Positions 5,821 to 56,745 of a stretch of 64,000 nucleotides of DNA are shown here, in pieces (positions within the stretch are counted from its first letter, which is position 1; every line of letters begins with the position of its first letter). Source of the DNA: Cordylochernes scorpioides (taxonomy: Eukaryota > Arthropoda > Arachnida > Pseudoscorpiones > Chernetidae); NCBI GenBank assembly GCA_030710605.1, contig CP092872.1, positions 93,956,627-94,020,626 of the forward strand, read 5' to 3'. Both the position numbers and the translations under genes were made by a program. Below the pieces are notes generated by a model. That model made no database searches and was not told the DNA's origin. It saw only the letters and a list, made by a program, of their open reading frames with translations.

Positions 5821-6600
5821 TTTTGGTGGAAGAGTGGTATAAACAATCGATTTTCGACAGTCATGACCTAGGATCGAATCCCCGCATTGGACACTTTTTT
5901 TCGGAAGAAATGTTTGCTTTAATGACACCCCCCGATTCTTGCAGAAGTCCAACCCCACCAGTGAGTACAAGTAACCAAACGGGAGACACACTTGTAAGTG
6001 TAAAATACGAACTTATTTCTACCTATGTAGATATATTAAAATAGGAAGGATACAGAGAAGATTAACATGCTCTCATGTGCAAGGATGACACGCTAAATCG
6101 TGAAGCGTTCTACATGTGTAGATATATTAAAATAGGAAGGATACAGAGAAGATTAACATGCTCTCATGTGCAAGGATGACACGCTAAATCGTGAAGCGTT
6201 CTACATGTGTAGATATATTAAAATAGGAAGGATACAGAGAAGATTAACATGCTCCCATGTGCAAGGATGACACGCTAAATAGTGAAGCGTTCTACATGTG
6301 TAGATATATTAAAATAGAAAGGATACAGAGAAGATTAGCATGCTCTCATGTGCAAGGATGACACGCTAAATAGTGAAGCGTTCTACATGTGTAGATATAT
6401 AAAAATAGGAAGGATACAGAGAAGATTAACATGCTCTCATGTGCAAGGATGACACGCTAAAACGTGAAGCATTCTACATGTGTAGATATGTGGTGTACTT
6501 ACAGTAAAAGCAATTTCTAACTACCAACCTTGAGTATCATAGCCTGTATAACGTGAATTTGGAATTTAAATAAAAAGTTGATGAAGGTCACGGACGCTCC
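5821..6600 (+). mobile_element. tRNA-derived SINE (SINE1) split by U6 array
   Basis: The head has a pol III B-box-like GGATCGAATCC (5871-5881), then CATTGGACAC and a T run. The body has CCAACCCCACCAG and AAGTAACCAAACGGG, in the same order as the complete copy at 63285-63570. The body stops at 6026 and resumes after the U6 array at about 6482 with TGTGGTGTACTTACAGT. It is noncoding. Confidence 0.7.
6027..6481 (+). repeat. Tandem array of five U6 snRNA-derived units
   Basis: Five 91-bp units start at 6027, 6118, 6209, 6300 and 6391. Each carries the hallmark U6 core: ATTAAAATAGGAAGGATACAG, the ACAGAGA box (first at 6052), GAAGATTA, CAAGGATGACACGC of the intramolecular stem-loop, and GTGAAGCGTTC. 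The U6 5' stem and the pol III T-run are missing, and the AGC triad is altered in most units (AAC; AGC remains in the fourth), so these are not functional spliceosomal genes. The joints reuse ACATGTGTAGA, a SINE1 sequence. Units differ at only a few positions, so expansion is fairly recent. Confidence 0.85.
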
Positions 6601-7084: not shown

Positions 7085-7440
7085 TATATATTTACCATCT
7101 ACTTATATAATTGCCTTATTCTGTCTGTGTGAAGTTCATTGTGTGAAGTTCACGGATAGATTTTGGTCAGAATGGATAAAATAAAAAAAGTGTCAAGGGA
7201 TGGGAATCGAACCCACGACCTTCCGCTTACCGGGCAGATGCCATGACCACTAGGCTACCCTGGACATATTTTTCCGTTCATAAAGTTAATATATGAAGTT
7301 TGGAACGGGACGTTTCACAAGAATGACATCCATGGCGCCAATTTATAATTGTAACGAATAGTATTTGAATTAAAACGTTTTTAAAATATATACGCACTCG
7401 GGTAAAACCCGGGCGTTGCCCGAGCCATTCGTCTAGTGTG
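7085..7440 (-). mobile_element. RTE-like short element with GC-rich terminal hairpin
   Basis: The right edge CCCGGGCGTTGCCCGAGCC matches the inverted hairpin at the window end (63965-64000) and resembles the one at 60838. The interior includes a tRNA-like fold at 7193-7264. I take it as a short nonautonomous retroposon; the exact family is uncertain. Confidence 0.4.
7193..7264 (-). tRNA. tRNA-Thr(GGU)-like fold, pseudo or SINE head
   Basis: A 72-nt minus-strand stretch fits the cloverleaf. The acceptor TCCAGGG/CCCTTGA has one mismatch and the D stem is GCC/GGC. The anticodon stem is TCTGC/GCGGA with loop CCGGTAA. The T arm is GTGGG-TTCGATT-CCCAT, and a T7 run follows as a pol III terminator. 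The anticodon would be GGU. Position 33 is C instead of the nearly invariant U, so it is more likely a tRNA pseudogene or SINE head than a working tRNA. Confidence 0.5.
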
Positions 7441-13129: not shown

Positions 13130-14452
13130 CTACTCTGATCAAAAAGTTTTGACACTTTGCTCATAAAATCCTGAAAACTCAATATATTTTCTCCCGGTTT
13201 GTGGCAAACGCAAGCGTCGCCCTTGGCTTGGAGACCTGCCAATTTTCAAAAATCACGCTCCACAACAGCGCGAGCAGCGGCTGTTCGAAGTGAAGCCATT
13301 TTGCTCGTGCTTCGATTTCGTTAGGCACCGAAATGGAGGATCAAAGAATTTGCATCAAGTTCTGTGTGAAAAACGGATTCAAGGGTGCCGAAATTTTTTG
13401 GATGTTGACGGGGATGCCGTCATGAGCCGAAGACGAGTTTTCGAGTGGTACAAGCGCTTCAAGGAGGGTCGGGAAGAGACCGCTGACAACGAACATTCCG
13501 GGAGACCGTCCACTTCAACCACGCCTGAAAAAGTGGACAAGGTGTTGGAACTTGTGCGTGAAGACCGGTGAATAACTGTCAGGGAGGTCGCCGAAGAAGC
13601 AGGGATATCATTCGGGTCGACTCAATCGATAATGAAGGACATTTTGGGAGTGAGAAGACTCAACACCGTTCTCGTTCCCAAAGATTTGACTTTTGATCAA
13701 AAGAACGCCCGGAAAGAAACGGCCAGTCTCAATCTCGAAGCGACAACCGACGACCCCGAATTGCTGAAGAGGGTCATTACTGGAGACGAAACATGGATTT
13801 ACGGCTTTGATTCGGAAACTACCCAACAGGCATCGGAGTGGCGCTTCAAAAACGAGCCGAGACCAAAGAAAGCGAGGAAGGCTCCCAGCAAAGTCAAGGT
13901 CATGTTGACGGTGTTCTTCGACTACCAGGGCATCGTTCATCATGAATTTCAACAACAAGGCTCTACAATAACTGCTGACTCCTACCTGGGAGTTTTGAGG
14001 CGATTGAGGGAAGCGATCAGGCAGAAACGGCCGGAGCTGTGGAGGAGCAAGTCGTGGATCCTCCACCACGATAACGCGCCGGCGCACACAGCCCTCAAAA
14101 TCTCGAAGTTCCTGCAGGACCACCCAACCTCTATGTTCCCCTAAACCCCCTCCCCCTACAGTCCCGATTTGGCCCCCTGCGAATTCTTCCTTTTTGGAAA
14201 GCTCAAAAAAAAAATTTAAAGGGTCGGAAATTTCAGAGCATAGAAGAGATCAAAGTGGAATCGAAGAAGGCCATGAAGGCGATCCCGAAAACAGACTACC
14301 AGAGGTGTTTTGCCGACTGGAAAAAAATGTGGCTGAAGTGCATCGCGGCCAACGGGAACTACTTTGAAGGGGACAATTTGAATTTGGAATAATAATAATT
14401 TTTTTTTTTTTTAACTTATGAGCAAAGTGTCGAAACTTTTTGATCAGAGTAG
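13130..14452 (+). mobile_element. Mariner element B
   Basis: 1,323 bp with inverted ends of about 35 bp (CTACTCTGATCAAAAAGTTT inward, ending TTTGCTCATAA) and TA duplications at 13128-13129 and 14453-14454. The boundaries are confirmed by the empty paralogous site at 52965-53075. Confidence 0.92.
13290..14392 (+). pseudogene. Mariner B transposase pseudogene
   Basis: In order: a helix-turn-helix part with RRVFEWYKRFKEGREET and SGRPSTS; one TGA at 13569-13571; then VITGDETWIYGF, VFFDYQGIVHHEF and ILHHDNAPAH. A TAA lies just before YSPDLAPCEFF. A frameshift occurs at the A10 run near 14206, and a tail WLKCIAANGNYFEGDN ends at a TAA (14390-14392). This resembles the SETMAR-annotated mariner clade common in invertebrates. 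The residue aligned with the third catalytic Asp is Glu, and the spacing from the second Asp is two longer than usual. Only two stops and one frameshift separate it from a full ORF, so it is younger than mariner A. The true start is unclear. Confidence 0.85.
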
Positions 14453-43733: not shown

Positions 43734-43984
43734 TTACTTTCATTTTCTTGTCTCTGCCACTAATAATGGCGTGATTCCCACTAATTTCGACTAGCTTCAT
43801 TACTATTCTTGTAGAATACCATAGATAATATTATAATCTATAGCTATCTAGTAATCCGTTTAACAATACTATTTCTGCAATATCAGAGAGTATGATTTTG
43901 ATAGATTCAGCTATGAGTATGCAGCGTTAAATCATGCTATTAGAGGTATCTAGTATCTCCATTTTAAACATTTTTCTCCTCTTC

Positions 43985-44621
43985 CTCCTTCAGTGGCTTC
44001 CTCTACTGAGGGTGGGCCACATGGTCTCTCCATATCTCCCTCCTTCAATGCCTTCCTCTACTGAGGGTGGACCACATGGTCTCTCCATATCTCCCTCCTT
44101 CAATACCTTCCTCTACTGAGGGTGGGCCACATGGTCTCGCCATATCTCCCTCCTTCAATGCCTTCCTCTACTGAGGGTGGGCCACATGGTCTCTCCATAT
44201 CTCCCTCCTCCAATGCCTTCCTCTACTGAGGGTGGGCCACATGGTCACTCCATATCTCCCTCCTTCAATGCCTTCCTCTACTGAGGGTGGACCACATGGT
44301 CTCTCCATATCTCCCTCCTTCAATACCTTCCTCTACTGAGGGTGGGCCACATGGTCTCGCCATATCTCCCTCCTTCAATACCTTCCTCTACTGAGGGTGG
44401 GCCACATGGTCTCGCCATATCTCCCTCCTTCAATACCTTCCTCTACTGAGGGTGGGCCACATGGTCTCTCCATATCTCCCTCCTTCAATACCTTCCTCTA
44501 CTGAGGGTGGGCCACATGGTCTCGCCATATCTCCCTCCTTCAATGCCTTCCTCTACTGAGGGTGGGCCACATGGTCTCTCCATATCTCCCTCCTTCAATG
44601 CTTTCCTCTACTAAGGGTGGG
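43985..44621. repeat. 55-bp minisatellite, ~11 copies
   Basis: Exact 55-bp period (starts at 44003, 44058, 44113, 44168, 44223 and so on) built on GGGTGGGCCACATGGTCTC and TCCCTCCTTCAATGCCTTCC. The BEL/Pao element is inserted in it at GTGGG, and 49709 resumes with GTGGGCCACATGGTCAC. Confidence 0.9.
44617..44621 (+). repeat. Target-site duplication, left (GTGGG)
   Basis: Identical to 49709-49713; five bases is the usual BEL/Pao length. Confidence 0.85.
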
Positions 44622-45014
44622 TGTTCCAGCCTTAAATATGCAAAATTGATAGAATTTACTTTTGTTAATTATTGTTAAATTATGTAAATTTTAGAAATGT
44701 ATATAATCTTGATTTTAGAAAATAAAGATAGTTATTGAGTTATTAAGTATACGTGGTTGAGTCATTAGAGTTGGTGAGACAAGAGTTATTAAGTGTACGT
44801 GGTTGAGTCATTAGAGTTGGTGAGACAAGAGTTATAAAAGTATACGTGGTTGAGTCATTAGAGTTAGTGAGACGAGACAATAGCAGTTATTCAAGTTTGA
44901 ATGAGTTATAGTTAGCTCGCTGAGTCAAGAAGCATATAATTAAAACCAGCGTTAAAATAAGAATTAGGCGGTGATTCCTCCTTAGTGCCAGGAGGCCAAA
45001 GCCAGTTCGATTCA
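44622..45014 (+). mobile_element. 5' LTR of the BEL/Pao element
   Basis: 393 bp, TGTTCCAGCC to CGATTCA. It holds three copies of a 46-bp internal repeat containing ACGTGGTTGAGTCATTAGAG. The 3' LTR has seven copies, and the 185-bp length difference equals those four extra units. Confidence 0.88.
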
Positions 45015-45032
45015 TGGTCCCTCGATATCTGG
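45015..45032 (+). other. Primer-binding-site candidate
   Basis: TGGTCCCTCGATATCTGG starts directly after the LTR with the TGG that pairs with a tRNA CCA end. The priming tRNA is not identified. Confidence 0.4.
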
Positions 45033-45088
45033 ATTAGGATTTGAAACAGAAGAAATTTAGCAAAAACTCAGCGAGAATACAATTGCAA

Positions 45089-48000
45089 ATGTCTCGAGAC
45101 GAAAGGATCCTCCAAAGAAAGTTAAGTTACCAGAAAAGGAGAATTGATGGATTTATTGAAAGTGTGGATTCAATTATTGAGGCAGGTGAAACAATACGCT
45201 TAGAAATAATGGGTGAAGAATTAAAGGAGATCAAAGAAAAAATTGAGAAACTCTACGACGAGCTGTTTTCTTTGGATGAAGTTGATATAGATAAAGAAAG
45301 TGAGGCATGTGATAGTTCAATGAACAAGATTGGAAGCTTGAGGGTAAAAATAGAAAATGAAAGAAAACTCAAAGACAAACTGGCGGACATAAAGCCAAAT
45401 GGCTCTCAGGCAAATATAAAATTGCCTCAATTTGACTTACCGATATATGATGGAGATATGGGCAATTGGATCAACTTCAAAGAGCTATTCCTCACCACCA
45501 TCGATGCACATCCAGGGTTAACTAATATACAGAAGTTACAATATTTGAATTCTGCAGTAAAAGGCGAAGCGGCCAGATTAATAAGGGGTTTCCCTTTACT
45601 AAGTGAAAATTATGGCCAAGCATGGAGTACACTGTTATCAAGATATGATAACCCGAGAGAGCTAGCTTATGCCCAGGTGTCAAAAATCTTTTCTCTCCGG
45701 GCAATTAAGAATCCATCGGCTAAGTGTCTCCATGAATTCATGGATGTTTGTAATGAAGCCATAAGAAACTTAGAAACGCTGGAATTGAAAAGAAATCAAT
45801 TTGTGGATGTGATCCTGGTGCACTTCCTCCAGCAGAAGTTGAGTGAAAATCTAAGGTTGGATTGGGAACTGTCAATGGACAATACTCTTCCATCTTATGA
45901 CAAGTTCATAGCATTCATTTCCAGACATGCGAGAAGCATGTCTTGTGCTGTCAAGGAATGTTCAAAAAGGGAAGAAACCACCGGATCGAGATTTCCCAAA
46001 TGCCAAAGCTACGGGATGCTAATTGAGAAATCGGACACTTGCATATTATGCAAATCTAAGCATCATCCACTATACATGTGCAACTTATTTTGCAAAATGC
46101 CTTTAAAAGAAAAATTAAATGTAGTGGAGAGTCATAAATTATGCTTCAATTGCTTGAGGAAAGGCCATTTCTCATGGAATTGTAGGCTGAACCAACGATG
46201 CAAAGTATGCAAGGGGAAGCACCACACGATGATTCATTATGATAAACCGAGCACGGAAGGCGCTTCGGCCCAAGTTGAGAACACAACTCCGAAGGAACAT
46301 GAAAGTGCTATCAATTTAACTAATACTCAACAGGCAAACTGCAATGATAGCCACGTACTACTCGCAACAGCTAGAATCAAGATAAAAAATGGACTCGGAA
46401 AGTTATGCACCTGCAGAGCCCTACTGGACAGCGGTTCCCAAGTCACCATGATAACAAAAGGATGCTGCGAAAGATTGGGACTTGTCCAAAGGAAATCAGA
46501 TCGGATGATTATAGGGGTTGGAAACACACCAGTGCAGCATTCTTCATCAACAGTAAGTGTGACATTTTGTCCACTGAATAATTCTGAGGAATTCTCGGTG
46601 GAGGCAGTAGTCACGGGAGTGCTCACTTCAGAAATTCCGAACTTCAGGTTGAAAGACCCTAATTGGCCAACTTTGAAGAACCTCAAATTGGCAGACCCAG
46701 AGTTCTACATACAAGCCCCAATAGATATGATATTGGGAGCAGATATATACACTGAACTTATGTTGAATGGCTCTATATCTCTCGGAGAAGGATTGCCAAT
46801 GGCTATTAATACAAGACTAGGTTGGGTACTTCTAGGAAAACTCATGGGAACATCGGAGAGTAATACAGAAGTCTGTAACCTGAGTTTACAATCTGAACCA
46901 GAACTAGAATTCGTAATGAAAAGATTCTGGGAAATTGAATCTGTGCCGTCACCGGATCTTTGTACACAGGACGAAGATTGTGAAAGGTTATTTTCGAATA
47001 ACCATGGCAGAGATAGCCATGGAAGGTATTGGGTAAAATTGCCATTCAGACAACATCGACCGCTTCTGGGTGAATCAAGAGAAAAAGCTTTAGGAAGGTT
47101 CCTTTCGTTGGAAAGAAAATTGTGTAAGAATGTGAAATTATATGACCAATACCGGGGATTCATGAAGGAATATGAACACTTAAACCACATGGAAAGGGTC
47201 CCAATTGCAGATGTGAAGCGAGAATTGTGCAGATGCTATTACATGCCTCATCATCCAGTAATTAGAGAGCAATCCACTACAACAAAAATGAGAGTTGTGT
47301 TTGATGCATCAGCTAAATCTGAAAAAAATGTTTCTTTAAATCAATTTTTGCACAAGGGACCAAAAATTCAACAGGATGTATTTTTCATTCTCCTCAGATT
47401 CAGAACGTATCCTGTCGCCATAACTGCTGATATAGAAAAGATGTACCGCCAGATAAGAATTCATCCAGAAGATGCGGACTATCAGAGGATATTGTGGAGA
47501 CCATCGCCAGAAGAGCCTGTGGTGGACTATCGACTGCTGACTGTTACCTATGGTACAACTTCGGCTCCATTTTTGGCAATGAGAACATTACAACAGTTAG
47601 CAGAAGATGAAGGCCATAATTATCCTGAGGCTTCTAGGGTGACCTTGAATGATTTCTATGTCGATGATTTGCTAACAGGAGCTCAAACGATTGCTGACAC
47701 CAAAGAACTAATAGACCAATTAAAGGACTTAATGAAAAAGGGAGGGTTTCACTTAAGAAAGTGGAATTCAAATTGCCACGAGATAGTGTCTCATGACGAG
47801 GAAATGAACGAAGAGAAGAAAATTAACTTGGAGAAAGGAGCCATATCCAAGATTTTAGGAATTGTATGGGATCATGTACAAGATACGTTTAGAGTTAATA
47901 TAACTCTTCCTGAGGAAGTTGTTACCAAAAGAGATCTTCTCTCCAATATTGCGAGGATTTTCGATCCAATTGGTTTCCTCTCACCTACTACAGTGGCAAT

Positions 48001-48463
48001 GGCGAATCTCCAGAGGCAGACCGCGGTCAAAGAAGTCGAGGATTTAGAAGGGCTACCAGTCTACCACCGCGCCATATTGAAGGAAAATGGAGAGTGGCCA
48101 GAAGTTACCAAAGCCATCCAATGTAGCTACCCGAAGGTCTTTGTCGGCGACGGAACTCATCTTTACCTCCTCATAGAAGATGTGGAATCTCTAGATGGCC
48201 CGAATGTCCGCTCGGTATTGTACCAATACCACATCCCTCACAAAAAATGGATCTGGAGAAAAGTGAATGGTTTCGCTCCAATAGTTATTTCCAAGTCTAT
48301 CGTTTATGCCTCTCACGATAAAAGGGTGTACTTTGTAGGAGGGAGAATACACTCTAGAGGGAATAAGGTAACTTGCACCGACAATATTGTCCGAGTGAAA
48401 CTTAAAGAGGGTCGGGCTTCTGTTCTAGTGAAAAGCAGGAAGTCGCCCCTAACTGACCTCTAG
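45089..48463 (+). CDS. BEL/Pao gag-protease-RT fused to kelch-like N-part
   Basis: The first ATG of the long frame is at 45089; the frame is open from 45038. Order: a coiled-coil-rich N-terminus; a DUF1759-type gag region from about 45419; three Cys/His knuckles (46040, 46143, 46199); a retropepsin-like DSG (about 46427); and reverse transcriptase with YVDD (47657-47668). The post-RT block KRDLLSNIARIFDPIGFLSP is typical of Pao. At about 48000-48020, where Pao proteins go on to RNase H and integrase, the sequence switches in frame to an unrelated part. That part includes KVFVGDGTHLYLLIEDV and KRVYFVGGRIHSRGN, a kelch-type blade. It ends at TAG 48461-48463, and the same frame is open again right after. 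The protein lacks the enzymes needed for complete replication. Confidence 0.85.
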   Translation: MSRDERILQRKLSYQKRRIDGFIESVDSIIEAGETIRLEIMGEELKEIKEKIEKLYDELFSLDEVDIDKESEACDSSMNKIGSLRVKIENERKLKDKLADIKPNGSQANIKLPQFDLPIYDGDMGNWINFKELFLTTIDAHPGLTNIQKLQYLNSAVKGEAARLIRGFPLLSENYGQAWSTLLSRYDNPRELAYAQVSKIFSLRAIKNPSAKCLHEFMDVCNEAIRNLETLELKRNQFVDVILVHFLQQKLSENLRLDWELSMDNTLPSYDKFIAFISRHARSMSCAVKECSKREETTGSRFPKCQSYGMLIEKSDTCILCKSKHHPLYMCNLFCKMPLKEKLNVVESHKLCFNCLRKGHFSWNCRLNQRCKVCKGKHHTMIHYDKPSTEGASAQVENTTPKEHESAINLTNTQQANCNDSHVLLATARIKIKNGLGKLCTCRALLDSGSQVTMITKGCCERLGLVQRKSDRMIIGVGNTPVQHSSSTVSVTFCPLNNSEEFSVEAVVTGVLTSEIPNFRLKDPNWPTLKNLKLADPEFYIQAPIDMILGADIYTELMLNGSISLGEGLPMAINTRLGWVLLGKLMGTSESNTEVCNLSLQSEPELEFVMKRFWEIESVPSPDLCTQDEDCERLFSNNHGRDSHGRYWVKLPFRQHRPLLGESREKALGRFLSLERKLCKNVKLYDQYRGFMKEYEHLNHMERVPIADVKRELCRCYYMPHHPVIREQSTTTKMRVVFDASAKSEKNVSLNQFLHKGPKIQQDVFFILLRFRTYPVAITADIEKMYRQIRIHPEDADYQRILWRPSPEEPVVDYRLLTVTYGTTSAPFLAMRTLQQLAEDEGHNYPEASRVTLNDFYVDDLLTGAQTIADTKELIDQLKDLMKKGGFHLRKWNSNCHEIVSHDEEMNEEKKINLEKGAISKILGIVWDHVQDTFRVNITLPEEVVTKRDLLSNIARIFDPIGFLSPTTVAMANLQRQTAVKEVEDLEGLPVYHRAILKENGEWPEVTKAIQCSYPKVFVGDGTHLYLLIEDVESLDGPNVRSVLYQYHIPHKKWIWRKVNGFAPIVISKSIVYASHDKRVYFVGGRIHSRGNKVTCTDNIVRVKLKEGRASVLVKSRKSPLTDL

Positions 48464-49100
48464 GTCCTGGCAATGACATTTGCACCATCGGCGTTCTTGT
48501 TTATGCTTGCAGAGACCCGCGACCACTCTACTTACAAGGTTTTCTCCTATCATCTCCTAAACAAAGATTGGCATCTGATTGGATCAGACAAAATATTTTG
48601 GAAAGAGAAATTTCTCTCTCTTCAGATTTGCTATACCAACAAGAAACTTTTACTATTCCCTCGAATGCAGTGGGAACAACACTTCTGTAATCTGTATAAC
48701 TACCGACTTCAAACAGATTCCTGGGGGTGTTATACAACTATTCCGATTCTTGGTGAGAAAGAGGGCTATCCAAAAAATATCAATCACTTTACTATTGTGC
48801 AGGATTGGGTAAGAGCTGTATTTGTTCACGCCGGGAAGGAGTCGAAATATTTATGGAAGTTGAACCTGAAGTCTAAACAATGGACTGAACTACCAACCTA
48901 TGTCAAATACAGAGATAGTCAATACACTGCTGTAGCTTTGGACCTGGTGTTCATATTGGGACCAGCTGATAAAGAACACGAGACTGCAGAGAAGTATTTG
49001 TCGTTCTTCAAGACCAGAAGGTGCGAGTTGCCCAAGTTCGGGCTGCTACCGGAGTCTACCTACGACCTATTACGAAGTTGGCTCCGCTTCCCTTCAAATC
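48000..49100 (+). other. Captured kelch-like insert
   Basis: About 1.1 kb in one frame, interrupted only by TAG at 48461. Several motifs of the form xYxxxxxxWxxL (FSYHLLNKDWHLI, LYNYRLQTDSWGCY, LWKLNLKSKQWTELP) and the YFVGGR strand fit successive beta-propeller blades. It is unrelated to retroelement proteins and has no introns, so it was probably copied from a spliced host mRNA by template switching. The donor gene is not identified, and the edges are approximate. Confidence 0.6.
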
Positions 49101-49144
49101 TGAACCAGGGTTCAGCGGCCGGGGGGAGTATGTTCCAGCCTTAA
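48473..49144 (+). CDS. Second half of the kelch-like frame
   Basis: 223 codons in the same frame as the upstream ORF, starting at an ATG four codons after the TAG. It continues the propeller-like sequence and ends in QGSAAGGSMFQP, where the last codons run through the polypurine tract into the 3' LTR. It could be made by stop-codon readthrough, by internal initiation, or not at all. Confidence 0.55.
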   Translation: MTFAPSAFLFMLAETRDHSTYKVFSYHLLNKDWHLIGSDKIFWKEKFLSLQICYTNKKLLLFPRMQWEQHFCNLYNYRLQTDSWGCYTTIPILGEKEGYPKNINHFTIVQDWVRAVFVHAGKESKYLWKLNLKSKQWTELPTYVKYRDSQYTAVALDLVFILGPADKEHETAEKYLSFFKTRRCELPKFGLLPESTYDLLRSWLRFPSNLNQGSAAGGSMFQP

Positions 49145-49708
49145 ATATGCAAAATTGTTAGAATTTACTTTTGTTAATTATTGTTAAATTATGTAAATTT
49201 TAGAAATGTATATAATCTTGATTTTAGAAAATAAAGATAGTTATTGAGTTATTAAGTATACGTGGTTGAGTCATTAGAGTTGGTGAGACAAGAGTTATTA
49301 AGTATACGTGGTTGAGTCATTAGAGTTGGTGAGACAAGAGTTATTAGGTGTACGTGGTTGAGTCATTAGAGTTGGTGAGACAAGAGTTATAAAAGTATAC
49401 GTGGTTGAGTCATTAGAGTTGGTGAGACAAGAGTTATTAAGTATACGTGGTTGAGTCATTAGAGTTGGTGAGACAAGAGTTATTAAGTGTACGTGGTTGA
49501 GTCATTAGAGTTGGTGAGACAAGAGTTATAAAAGTATACGTGGTTGAGTCATTAGAGTTAGTGAGACGAGACAATAGCAGTTATTCAAGTTTGAATGAGT
49601 TATAGTTAGCTCGCTGAGTCAAGAAGCATATAATTAAAACCAGCGTTAAAATAAGAATTAGGCGGTGATTCCTCCTTAGTGCCAGGAGGCCAAAGCCAGT
49701 TCGATTCA
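49131..49708 (+). mobile_element. 3' LTR of the BEL/Pao element
   Basis: 578 bp with the same termini as the 5' LTR and seven internal 46-47-bp repeats. At least one substitution (AATTGTTAG versus AATTGATAG) separates the two LTRs. Confidence 0.88.
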
Positions 49709-49870
49709 GTGGGCCACATGGTCACTCCATACTTCCTCCGCCATCCTCTTCATCTCCTCGTAGGTGTGTGGTCCAGTCCATTGTTTTAGATCTTCTGTGT
49801 ATCCCCGACGTCTCCTTCCCCGGAGCTTTCCCTCCAACACTGTCAGCAATCTTAGCGCTGGTAATAATTT
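49709..49870 (-). pseudogene. RTE-like LINE C-terminal fragment
   Basis: The minus-strand frame reads EGKLRGRRRRGYTEDLKQW, TGPHTYEEMKRMAEEVWSDH. The GKRGRG..W.DD.K.WTG....E..R.A.....W pattern is the usual end of RTE-type LINE proteins. Its last codons run into the 55-bp minisatellite, which is now split off by the BEL insertion. Confidence 0.65.
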
Positions 49871-49879
49871 TTTATCAGC

Positions 49880-51800
49880 TAGATGCAGCTCTACTACCTA
49901 GGCCAATTGTAGTTTTTCCTACTTCGGAGACATTAGAGAATATGTGAGAATGAAAAAGTTCAAGCTAGTAGGGCAACAGTTCAATATCTCCACAAAGTTT
50001 CAGGTATAAAAGGTACTATATAATACACTGCGGCATGTAATTGTAAAACGACACTTGAAGTTTCACCGCATGAGTTTCTTTTCAACGACAAATTAAAATT
50101 TTATTTTAAGGAGAAATATCGACTATTTCTAACCTTTTTGGATGAGGTATGAAAGGATGAATTATGAAGAGTAATGACGAATTATTTCATAATTCATCCT
50201 TTCATACCTCATCCAAAAAGGTTAGAAATAGTCGATATTTCACCTTGAAATAAAATTTTAATTTGTCGTTGAAAAGAAACTCATGCGGTGAAACTTCAAG
50301 TGTCGTTTTATAAAAGGTACTAGCTGTCTTCCAGTAGTGGCAGATTGGCTTTACCACTTACACCATATGCCATTAGTGGTTTTTCTACTTCAGAGACAAC
50401 AGGGAATCTGTGAGATAAGAGAGTATAAGCCAATATGGCCAAAAGCCATGATGTCCACACAGAGAAAGGCCGAGATAAAAGCTTGCCATCTGTTGTAGCA
50501 GATTGGCCACGCCATTTAAACCATTCATGATTTTTCCCCTAGAGATATCAGTAAATCTGTGAGATAAGCGATTCCAATGTTTTTGGTCATATCGACCAAC
50601 AAGCTATTATCTTCACAAAGAGAAAGGCTTAAGCACAGGAGATTGCTACCAGTAGTGGCTGATTGTGCCATTTAAGCCATATGCCATTTGTGGTTTTTAT
50701 ACTTCAGAGATATCAGTTAACCTGTCGGATGAGCCATTTCAAAGAGCCAGTACGGCCAAATATCTACGGATTCCACACAGAGAAAGTCCTAGGTAAGAGC
50801 TATCAGTGGCAGATGTGAAACAACACTTAAACAATATACCATTTTAGGTTTTCCTACTTCAGAGATATCAGTAAATCTGTGAGATGAGATAGTTCAAGAC
50901 AGTACGGCTAACTAGCTATGAATTCCACACAGACAATTTTCAAAATAAGAGCTAGCTATCAGCACCAGTGGAAGATGGAAAACACCACTTAACCCATATG
51001 CCGTTTATGATTTTACTACCTAAGAGATATCAGTTAACCTGTCAGATAAGAGATTACAAGCCAGTACGGCTAACTAGCTATGAATTCCACACAGAGAAAG
51101 TCCAAAGTAAGAGCTAGCAATAGCAGTGACAAATTGAAAATACCACTCAGACTATGTCATTTTGTGGTTTATCTACTTCAAAGATATCAGTAAACCTATC
51201 AGATAAGCCATTTCAAGCCAGTATAGCCTACTAGCTATGGATTCCACACAAAATCTAAAGTAAGAGCTAGCAGTAGCAGTAGCAGTGGCAAATTGGAAAT
51301 ACCACTCAGACTATGTCATTTTGTGGTTTATCTACTTCAAAGATATCAGTAAACCTATCAGATAAGCCATTTCAAGCCAGTATAGCCTACTAGCTATGGA
51401 TTCCACACAAAATCTAAAGTAAGAGCTAGCAGTAGCAGTAGCAGTGGCAAATTGGAAATACCACTCAGACTATGTCATTTTGTGGTTTATCTACTTCAGA
51501 GATATCAGTAAACCTATCAGATAAGCAATTTCAAGCCAGTATAGCCTACTAGCTATGGATTCCACACAAAATCTAAAGTAAGAGCTAGCAGTAGCAGTGG
51601 CAAATTGGAAATACCACTCAGACTATGTCATTTTGTGGTTTATCTACTTCAAAGACATCAGTTAACTTGTCAGATGAGAGATTCCAAGCCAGTACGGCTA
51701 ACTAGCTATGATCTCCACGCAGACAAAGTCCAAGAGCTAGCTAGCAGTAGCAGATGGGCGATACCACTTAAACCATATGCCGCCACGTGTGGTTTTTCTA
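49880..51800. repeat. Satellite array, ~140-160-bp units
   Basis: About eleven units with TATCAGTAAACCTATCAGAT, CAAGCCAGTATAGCCTACTAGCTATGG-type and TTCCACACA blocks. Units are diverged on the left and nearly identical at 51150-51650, which suggests recent local amplification. Confidence 0.85.
50005..50330. repeat. Long foldback F, copy 2, inserted in the satellite
   Basis: An almost perfect hairpin with arms of about 125 bp (GACACTTGAAGTTTCACCGC outward; TTTTTGGATGAGGTATGAAA inward). TATAAAAGGTACTA on both sides looks like a target duplication. Confidence 0.8.
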
Positions 51801-55375: not shown

Positions 55376-55689
55376 TTCATTCGTGACGATTTCTTCTCCT
55401 AATATTAATTTGAAGAGATTTGACAAAAACAACAAAAAAAATCAATTTATCATTATCAATTGGATCTCAAATTCTCCCTCATTGTGGAGAGAAAGTTTCT
55501 CTAGGCCTAATTAATATACGACCTTGACGTAACAATGTAAACAAAAAAAACATGATTTGTGAAGGCAAACACGCGCAGAACCTTGAGGTGTTATATCTAA
55601 GGACGCGAGGATGTGTTTTAGATCGACTTCCGTGTTAAGGTCATCCTTTGTGGAGATAGATTTGAGAACAAATGGCAAGTAGGTTTATA

Positions 55690-56745
55690 GACTGGACCTC
55701 AGCATGGAACTTTCTGGTCAACTGGTTCTGTTTGGACTGACCCACCTCAATCCTACATCTATGGCCATCCTCCCAGACTAGACCTCAGCATGGAACTTTC
55801 TGGTCAACTGGTTCTGTTTGGACTGACCCACCTCAACCCTACATCTATGGCCAGCCTCCCAGACTAGACCTCAGCATGGAACTTTCTGGTCAACTGGTTC
55901 TGTTTGGACTGACCCACCTCAACCCTACATCTATGGCCAGCCTCCCAGACTAGACCTCAGCATGGAACTTCCTGGTCAACTGGTTCTGTTTGGACTGACC
56001 CACCTCAATCCTACATCTATGGCCATCCTCCCAGACTGGACCTCAGCATGGAACTTCCTGGTCAACTGGTTCTGTTTGGACTGACCCACCTCAATCCTAC
56101 ATCTATGGCCATCCTCCCAGACTAGACCTCAGCATGGAACTTTCTGGTTAACTGGTTCTGTTTGGACTGACCCACCTCAATCCTACATCTATGGCCATCC
56201 TCCCAGACTAGATCTCAGCATGGAACTTTCTGGTTAACTGGTTCTGTTTGGACTGACCCACCTCAATCCTACATCTATGGCCAGTCTCCCAGACTAGACC
56301 TTAGCATGGAACTTTCTGGTCAACTGGTTCTGTTTGGACTGACCCACCTCAATCCTACATCTATGGTCAACCTCCCAGACTAGACCTCAGCATGGAACTT
56401 TCTGGTTAACTGGTTCTGTTTGGACTGACCCACCTCAATCCTACATCTATGGCCAGTCTCCCAGACTAGACCTTAGCATGGAACTTTCTGGTCAACTGGT
56501 TCTGTTTGGACTGACCCACCTCAATCCTACATCTATGGTCAACCTCCCAGACTAGACCTCAGCATGGAACTTTCTGGTTAACTGGTTCTGTTTGGACTGA
56601 CCCACCTCAATCCTACATCTATGGCCATCCTCCCAGACTGGACCTCAGCATGGAACTTTCTGGTCAACTGGTTCTGTTTGGACTGACCTATCTCAACCCT
56701 ACATCTATGGTCAACCTCCCAGACTGGGCCTCAGAATGGTTCTGT
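55690..56745 (+). repeat. 86-bp minisatellite, ~12 copies
   Basis: Period 86 (starts near 55695, 55781, 55867) of GACCTCAGCATGGAACTTTC, TTCTGTTTGGACTGACCCAC and TACATCTATGGCCA. Units are over 90% alike by eye. Confidence 0.88.

What the first reader, a model, noticed from the sequence alone, without database searches (positions are those of the whole stretch)
44617..49713. BEL/Pao retrotransposon that carries a kelch-like host gene in place of RNase H and integrase
The sequence shows two LTRs (393 and 578 bp), a perfect 5-bp GTGGG duplication, gag/protease/RT motifs, and an in-frame switch at about 48,000 to sequence with propeller-blade motifs and no retroelement character. The insert is intronless and sits before the polypurine tract, so the chimera itself was reverse transcribed and integrated. 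A cell-derived gene carried by an LTR element resembles oncogene capture by retroviruses; for BEL/Pao I know of no standard example. The missing enzymes imply mobilisation by a complete relative.
Basis: partly seen in the sequence, partly recalled or inferred. Interest (0 to 1): 0.93.

Follow-up and report, generated by a model that had tools for sequence, protein, structure and literature searches.

The report
Jumping element carrying a kelch gene
In a genome that is very probably a pseudoscorpion's, a virus-like jumping element has lost two of its own enzymes and carries instead a propeller-like protein domain that looks taken from a cell gene; the hybrid has spread to many chromosomes, apparently with help from complete relatives.

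Summary
The finding holds and can be sharpened. Window 44622-49708 is a BEL/Pao LTR element with a perfect 5-bp target duplication; its LTRs differ by one substitution in 393 aligned bases plus repeat number. Gag, protease and RT are present. At 47998/47999 the frame switches to a 1,013-nt kelch-like segment ending near 49011; the next 119 nt are the 3' end of normal pol in another frame. No RNase H or integrase match remains. The junction is neither unique nor a misassembly: 30 of 63 proteins found carry the insert, on 18 contigs of Cordylochernes scorpioides, 27 of 30 with the same left junction. Twenty-three close relatives continue with normal pol instead. In 18 of 30 chimeric models 210 bp of the RT core are also missing, which implies mobilisation in trans. 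The window copy has an in-frame stop in the kelch part; intact copies exist. Chimeras and normal copies share 12 amino-acid polymorphisms, suggesting recombination (formal tests mixed). No donor gene was found, so a host origin is inferred. Maize Bs1 and LTR-mediated retroposition are precedents: a new variant of a known kind.

The parts
44617..44621 (+). 5' target-site duplication GTGGG
44622..45014 (+). 5' LTR, 393 bp, starts TGTTCC, ends GATTCA; 46-bp array 44737-44877 (3.0 copies)
45015..45032 (+). Possible primer-binding site, starts TGG directly after the LTR (tRNA not identified)
   Evidence: sequence; role recalled, not tested
45038..48463 (+). Gag-protease-RT-kelch reading frame, 1,141 aa; first Met of related gene models at 45089; ends at TAG
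45446..45871 (+). Gag domain DUF1759 (PF03564), E 3.5e-33
46142..46225 (+). Two Cys-His stretches of gag (46142-46183, 46199-46225)
   Evidence: motif recalled
46391..46618 (+). Aspartyl protease (PF13650), DSG motif within 46421-46441
47402..47758 (+). Reverse transcriptase match (PF00078, partial, below cut-off); YVDD within 47654-47674
47251..47468 (+). TCATCCAG direct repeats (47251-47258, 47461-47468) that bound the 210-bp stretch missing in 18 of 30 chimeric gene models; the window copy keeps it
47924..48037 (+). Peptidase_A17 match (columns 1-38 of 162), breaking off just past the junction
47999..49011 (+). Captured kelch-like propeller segment, 1,013 nt (ends uncertain by a few bases), no intron visible
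48461..48463 (+). In-frame TAG in the kelch segment of this copy
49012..49130 (+). Remnant of the 3' end of normal pol, out of frame with the kelch segment, including a G-rich tract 49117-49130 next to the LTR
49131..49708 (+). 3' LTR, 578 bp; 46-bp array 49246-49571 (7.0 copies)
49709..49713 (+). 3' target-site duplication GTGGG

Best explanation
This is one recent copy of a non-autonomous, gene-transducing BEL/Pao family. An ancestral complete element exchanged its RNase H-integrase segment for about 1 kb of kelch-propeller coding sequence, most likely by two template switches during reverse transcription: RT began on element RNA at the 3' end, switched to a co-packaged kelch transcript (or to an element-kelch read-through transcript), then switched back within pol. 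The chimera keeps what it needs in cis (LTRs, primer site, G-rich tract, gag) and is packaged, reverse transcribed and integrated with enzymes supplied by complete relatives, with which it also recombines. Shown: structure, junctions, multiplicity, close normal relatives, absence of the enzymes, a sub-lineage of gene models without the RT core. Inferred: template switching, trans-supply, recombination, cellular origin of the segment, and any function of the fused protein.
For: Left junction identical in 27 of 30 chimeric proteins (the other 3 models skip across it), right junction in 19 of 30, both in 16 of 30. Of 23 relatives with normal pol at that place, 22 are 94-97% identical to the window over the RT tail and one 88%. 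One of them, P0037, matches Peptidase_A17 over its whole length, Integrase_H2C2 and DUF5641 above their cut-offs, and rve below it (23.1 bits against 32.6). The normal C-terminus is found out of frame right after the insert. A 210-bp loss between 8-bp repeats occurs in 18 of 30 chimeric models and 0 of 23 normal ones; by reading the flanks printed, no placement gives GT-AG ends, so it is not a canonical intron. TSD, empty site and near-identical LTRs show that the chimera itself integrated, and lately. Twelve shared polymorphisms, no near-fixed difference; AU p 0.027 against one chimera clade over 472 columns. Kelch: PF24681 E 3.9e-7, KLHDC10 E 1e-4, four motifs spaced 107, 51, 53 aa, 0 of 20,000 shuffles with as many.
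Against: No donor gene found: three protein searches gave only chimeras or element proteins. Other copies are known only as gene models, so their LTRs and DNA junctions were not seen, and some gaps may be annotation errors. Kelch matches lie below curated cut-offs, and the structure model failed (mean pLDDT 31.7). On recombination: the AU test first made, on the RT tail, does not reject one clade (p 0.108); the longer region was tried after that; and the classes differ slightly (between minus within 0.35%, 0 of 5,000 permutations as high), so mixing is incomplete.
Confidence: 0.8

Rival explanations
1. The kelch segment came from another mobile element or a virus (for example a DNA virus with kelch genes) rather than from a pseudoscorpion gene.
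For: No cellular homologue was found in three searches; BEL/Pao elements are known to take up viral genes (recalled).
Against: A scan of viral contigs, able to find close relatives only, gave none; the only solved-structure match up to E 10 is KLHDC10. A donor gene hidden by repeat masking would explain its absence from gene models (inference).
Confidence: 0.15
2. The chimera arose at the DNA level (nested insertion, deletion and joining inside an integrated copy) and only later was transcribed and spread.
For: Capture and pol loss could be two separate events; no donor DNA is available to check for introns or microhomology.
Against: The loss of pol and the gain of the kelch segment share both end points and the left fusion is in frame, which double template switching gives in one step; the 210-bp loss between direct repeats in the same family is a similar kind of error. 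None of this is decisive.
Confidence: 0.2
3. Assembly or annotation artefact at 48,000.
For: The other copies are gene models with many evident splicing errors.
Against: Same junction in 27 of 30 models on many contigs; contiguous window sequence with LTRs and matching TSD.
Confidence: 0.02
4. The kelch part is a mere passenger that spread with a shortened element and has no function.
For: The window copy has a stop inside the kelch frame although its LTRs are nearly identical; many gene models skip parts of the segment.
Against: Fourteen of 30 chimeric models read on without a break past the place of the window stop, and kelch residues differ less among 13 chimeras (1.7%) than gag (2.1%), RT (2.9%) or protease-RT (3.8%); but gene models are biased to open frames, and a younger common ancestor would give the same.
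Confidence: 0.5

Closest known systems
Bs1 retroelement of maize
   Same: LTR element carrying segments of cellular genes inside it (passages of the review PMC13317346)
   Different: Plant element with segments of three host genes; here an animal BEL/Pao element, one captured propeller, many copies, and close normal relatives in the same genome
LTR-mediated retroposition in metazoans (Tan et al. 2016; paper not held; seen only as cited in passages of PMC5408686)
   Same: Template switching between LTR-element RNA and an encapsulated cellular mRNA
   Different: Those cases are described as retrocopies; here the chimera became a replicating sub-family with at least 30 protein clusters
Transducing (oncogene-carrying) retroviruses with helper virus
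   Same: Cell-derived gene taken up by a retroelement (start of abstract of PMC13297096 in the listing); replacement of viral genes and helper dependence are recalled
   Different: Endogenous element; no effect on the cell known; donor not identified
ORF3-carrying LTR elements of bdelloid rotifers (Rodriguez et al. 2017)
   Same: LTR elements with extra non-envelope ORFs of enzyme origin (abstract and Discussion of PMC5408684 read)
   Different: There the ORF comes in addition to gag and pol; here it replaces RNase H and integrase

Membership tests
BEL/Pao LTR retrotransposon | LTRs and target-site duplication | tested here: met
BEL/Pao LTR retrotransposon | BEL/Pao-type gag and pol (DUF1759, Peptidase_A17) | tested here: met
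   Peptidase_A17 only columns 1-38 of 162 in the window, 1-162 in relatives P0043, P0050, P0042 and P0037, 1-115 in P0048
BEL/Pao LTR retrotransposon | RNase H and integrase in pol | tested here: not met
   in relative P0037 Integrase_H2C2 is above and rve below its cut-off. Hence a deletion derivative of a BEL/Pao element
Kelch beta-propeller | Match to kelch profiles | tested here: inconclusive
   E-values down to 3.9e-7 but all below curated cut-offs
Kelch beta-propeller | Repeats of about 50 aa with kelch strand motif | tested here: met
   Motifs at 74, 181, 232, 285, 0 of 20,000 shuffles with as many; 1 match in the 987-aa gag-RT control (pattern drawn up after reading the sequence)
Kelch beta-propeller | Propeller fold | tested here: inconclusive
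   Model mainly beta but mean pLDDT 31.7
Transducing LTR element (gene capture) | Chimera itself replicated | tested here: met
Transducing LTR element (gene capture) | Cellular donor identified | tested here: not met
Transducing LTR element (gene capture) | Insert lacks donor introns | not testable with these tools
   No donor; insert shows no intron over 1,013 nt
Helper-dependent element | Mobilised by complete relatives | not testable with these tools
   Inferred from missing enzymes and RT-core loss

The most novel reading that the evidence does not exclude
The kelch propeller is kept because it helps the element: a Gag-protease-RT-kelch polyprotein puts a substrate-binding propeller into particles or onto host targets, making a helper-dependent retroelement lineage with a selected cell-derived gene, the intragenomic counterpart of an acute transducing retrovirus.
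Probability: 0.25. Interest if true: 0.85.

Novelty: new variant of a known kind. Interest (0 to 1): 0.62.

Why it matters
Gene capture by LTR elements in animals is mostly known from single retrocopies (recalled). Here a captured segment, close normal relatives, marks of recombination and a still more defective sub-lineage sit in one genome, so the steps from capture to spread can be read directly. No BEL/Pao case was seen in the listings of the paper searches made (open-licence papers only, long listings cut at 10-20).

Tried and rejected
Assembly artefact: rejected by the repeated junction. Kelch as a normal Pao domain: rejected, 23 close relatives lack it at that place. P0054 as a donor: its match is RT (57.7% over residues 826-985), not kelch. 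Integrase match of P0042 as proof of a complete relative: dropped, it lies far downstream in a model that appears to run into another element; P0037 used instead. Candidate shared polymorphisms at residues 103-110 and 421-432 (19 of 31) were dropped as gene-model splice edges; stretches under 75% identity had been left out before the count, and sites needed at least 5 chimeras and 4 normal copies. Structure prediction failed for want of a deep alignment, so no fold search was made. Viral scan: one stretch matched a pattern, none encoded a relative. One-clade test: p 0.108 on 177 columns, then p 0.027 on 472 columns with no starred branch and an unsettled bootstrap; two rows there, P0014 and P0046, have long branches that look like annotation errors.

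Full report
What is in the window. The element runs from 44622 to 49708 between two GTGGG copies. The LTRs are 393 and 578 bp; aligned, they differ by one substitution in 393 bases and by 185 bp of a 46-bp internal array (3.0 against 7.0 copies). The insertion lies at the end of a 55-bp tandem array; the joined flanks continue an array unit (right flank 93% like a unit over 28 nt) and then leave it. Its main frame, 45038-48463, has DUF1759 (E 3.5e-33), an aspartyl protease (1.5e-5), a partial RT match (1.4e-5, below the curated cut-off) and only the first 38 of 162 columns of Peptidase_A17, the Pao-specific model; nothing matches RNase H, integrase or DUF5641. YVDD, RT motif A and Cys-His stretches are present (motif names recalled).

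The junctions. In normal relatives the frame runs ...FLSPTTVA-LKIIMQELWR...; in the window and other chimeras it runs ...FLSPTTVA-MANLQRQTAVKEV..., which puts the left junction at 47998/47999. Three normal models (P0040, P0046, P0048) show the C-terminus ...DQKVRVAQVRAATGVYLRPITKLAP... The window encodes this tail from about 49012, but in a frame different from the kelch frame. So the insert is 47999-49011 (1,013 nt, ends uncertain by a few bases), and the peptide after it in the kelch frame is out-of-frame pol. The window copy has a TAG at 48461-48463 inside the kelch frame. Fourteen of 30 chimeric models read on without a break past that place, so intact copies exist.

Is it kelch? With the stop read through, the segment matches PF24681 (KLHDC2/KLHL20 kelch) at 3.9e-7 and PF24981 (attractin/LZTR1 propeller) at 1.3e-5, with 30 and 25 bits against curated cut-offs of 50. 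Its only match in solved structures up to E 10 is KLHDC10, E 1e-4, over residues 68-301. A kelch strand motif occurs at 74, 181, 232 and 285 (spacings 107, 51, 53); 0 of 20,000 shuffles have as many, and the 987-aa gag-RT part has one match, though the pattern was drawn up after seeing the sequence. Five of the ten tryptophans (33, 84, 191, 242, 295) fit a blade period of about 52, i.e. about six blades with one lacking its Trp; this choice and reading are mine. A structure model was useless (mean pLDDT 31.7). I call it a divergent kelch-like propeller with good but not conclusive support.

Where it occurs. Three protein searches returned 63 distinct proteins. Thirty contain the insert, 23 contain the start of normal pol at that place, and 10 are neither. 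All 53 of the first two classes are named as Cordylochernes scorpioides, a pseudoscorpion, so the window is very probably from that species; this rests on the element's proteins alone. The left junction is present in 27 of 30; the remaining three models skip from RT into the insert. The right junction is present in 19 of 30, both in 16 of 30; the other models leave the frame near the junction or skip it. No search gave a kelch protein outside the element, even at E 10. By the tool's length rule the searches covered about 124-395 aa (3' part, E 0.01), 210-667 aa (whole segment, E 10) and 627-1,997 aa (RT tail with 5' part, E 0.001), and need shared exact words. A donor gene hidden by repeat masking would be missed; this is an inference.

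How it moves. The window copy lacks integrase and RNase H. P0037, 90.5% identical over residues 471-988 (gaps of the model included), matches Peptidase_A17 in full, Integrase_H2C2 and DUF5641 above their cut-offs, and rve below it, so relatives with the rest of pol exist. Eighteen of 30 chimeric models join the two sides of a 210-bp stretch between TCATCCAG copies (47251, 47461) that holds RT motif A. None of 23 normal models shows this. Seven of 30 chimeras keep motif A and 5 do not show the place; 19 of 23 normal models keep motif A or the start of the stretch and 4 do not show it by the exact motifs used. From the printed flanks, no placement of the gap gives GT-AG ends, so I read it as a real deletion. 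Copies with neither RT core nor integrase can only have spread with enzymes supplied in trans (inference).

Recombination. Between residues 18 and 987 no site is nearly fixed between the classes. Of 31 sites where two residues are each seen at least twice in both classes, 19 lie at gene-model splice edges and were dropped; 12 remain. One founder could not have carried both states, so recombination with normal elements (or parallel change) is needed. In RT 811-987 the mean difference is 3.4% among 27 chimeras, 2.2% among 20 normal copies and 3.2% between them; 13 of 27 chimeras and 6 of 20 normal copies have a member of the other class among their nearest. Yet the small excess between classes (0.35%) exceeds all 5,000 permutations, so mixing is not complete. 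In a smaller, hand-picked set of 13 chimeras and 11 normal copies the values were 2.9%, 2.4% and 2.8%. The tree of that region (48 rows, window included) needs 8 label changes but one clade is not rejected (AU p 0.108). I then tried 472 columns and 30 rows: 4 changes, none of 200 bootstrap trees with one, one clade rejected at p 0.027, but no starred branch. I take recombination as likely, not proven.

Function. Among those 13 chimeras, kelch residues differ by 1.7% on average, gag by 2.1%, RT by 2.9% and protease-RT by 3.8%. This fits constraint, but equally a younger ancestor of the insert, and gene models favour open frames and carry splice errors. Without DNA of other copies dN/dS cannot be measured.

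Precedents. Bs1 of maize carries parts of three host genes (passages of PMC13317346). LTR-mediated retroposition by template switching is described for metazoans (passages of PMC5408686; the original paper is not held). Bdelloid LTR elements carry extra enzyme ORFs (abstract and Discussion of PMC5408684). Six searches for BEL/Pao or LTR elements with kelch or captured genes showed no such case in titles and abstract starts (20 of 461, 12 of 98, 10 of 179 and 12 of 708 papers listed; no paper). The kind is therefore known; what is unusual is the superfamily, the replacement of RNase H-integrase, the copy number, and the close normal relatives in the same genome.

Noticed in passing
window 6017-6489: Tandem array of about five 91-bp units that resemble U6 snRNA; Rfam U6 reaches its gathering score at 6110-6210 and 6292-6392.
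   Followed up: partly
window 7190-7265: tRNA-Thr (GGT) gene on the minus strand.
   Followed up: no
window 43980-44621: 55-bp tandem array (11.7 copies) into whose end the element is inserted.
   Followed up: partly
window 50041-50313: 128-nt inverted repeat, 98% complementary, 17-nt loop, just downstream of the element.
   Followed up: no
window 13572-14144: Open frame that looks like a mariner transposase (read by eye).
   Followed up: no
window 55689-56739: 86-bp tandem array, 12.2 copies, 95% matches.
   Followed up: no
window 44737-44877 and 49246-49571: The 46-bp array inside the LTR differs in copy number between the two LTRs (3.0 against 7.0), although they are otherwise nearly identical.
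   Followed up: partly
window 47999: The insert begins with ATG directly at the junction; it might be the donor's own start codon, or chance.
   Followed up: no
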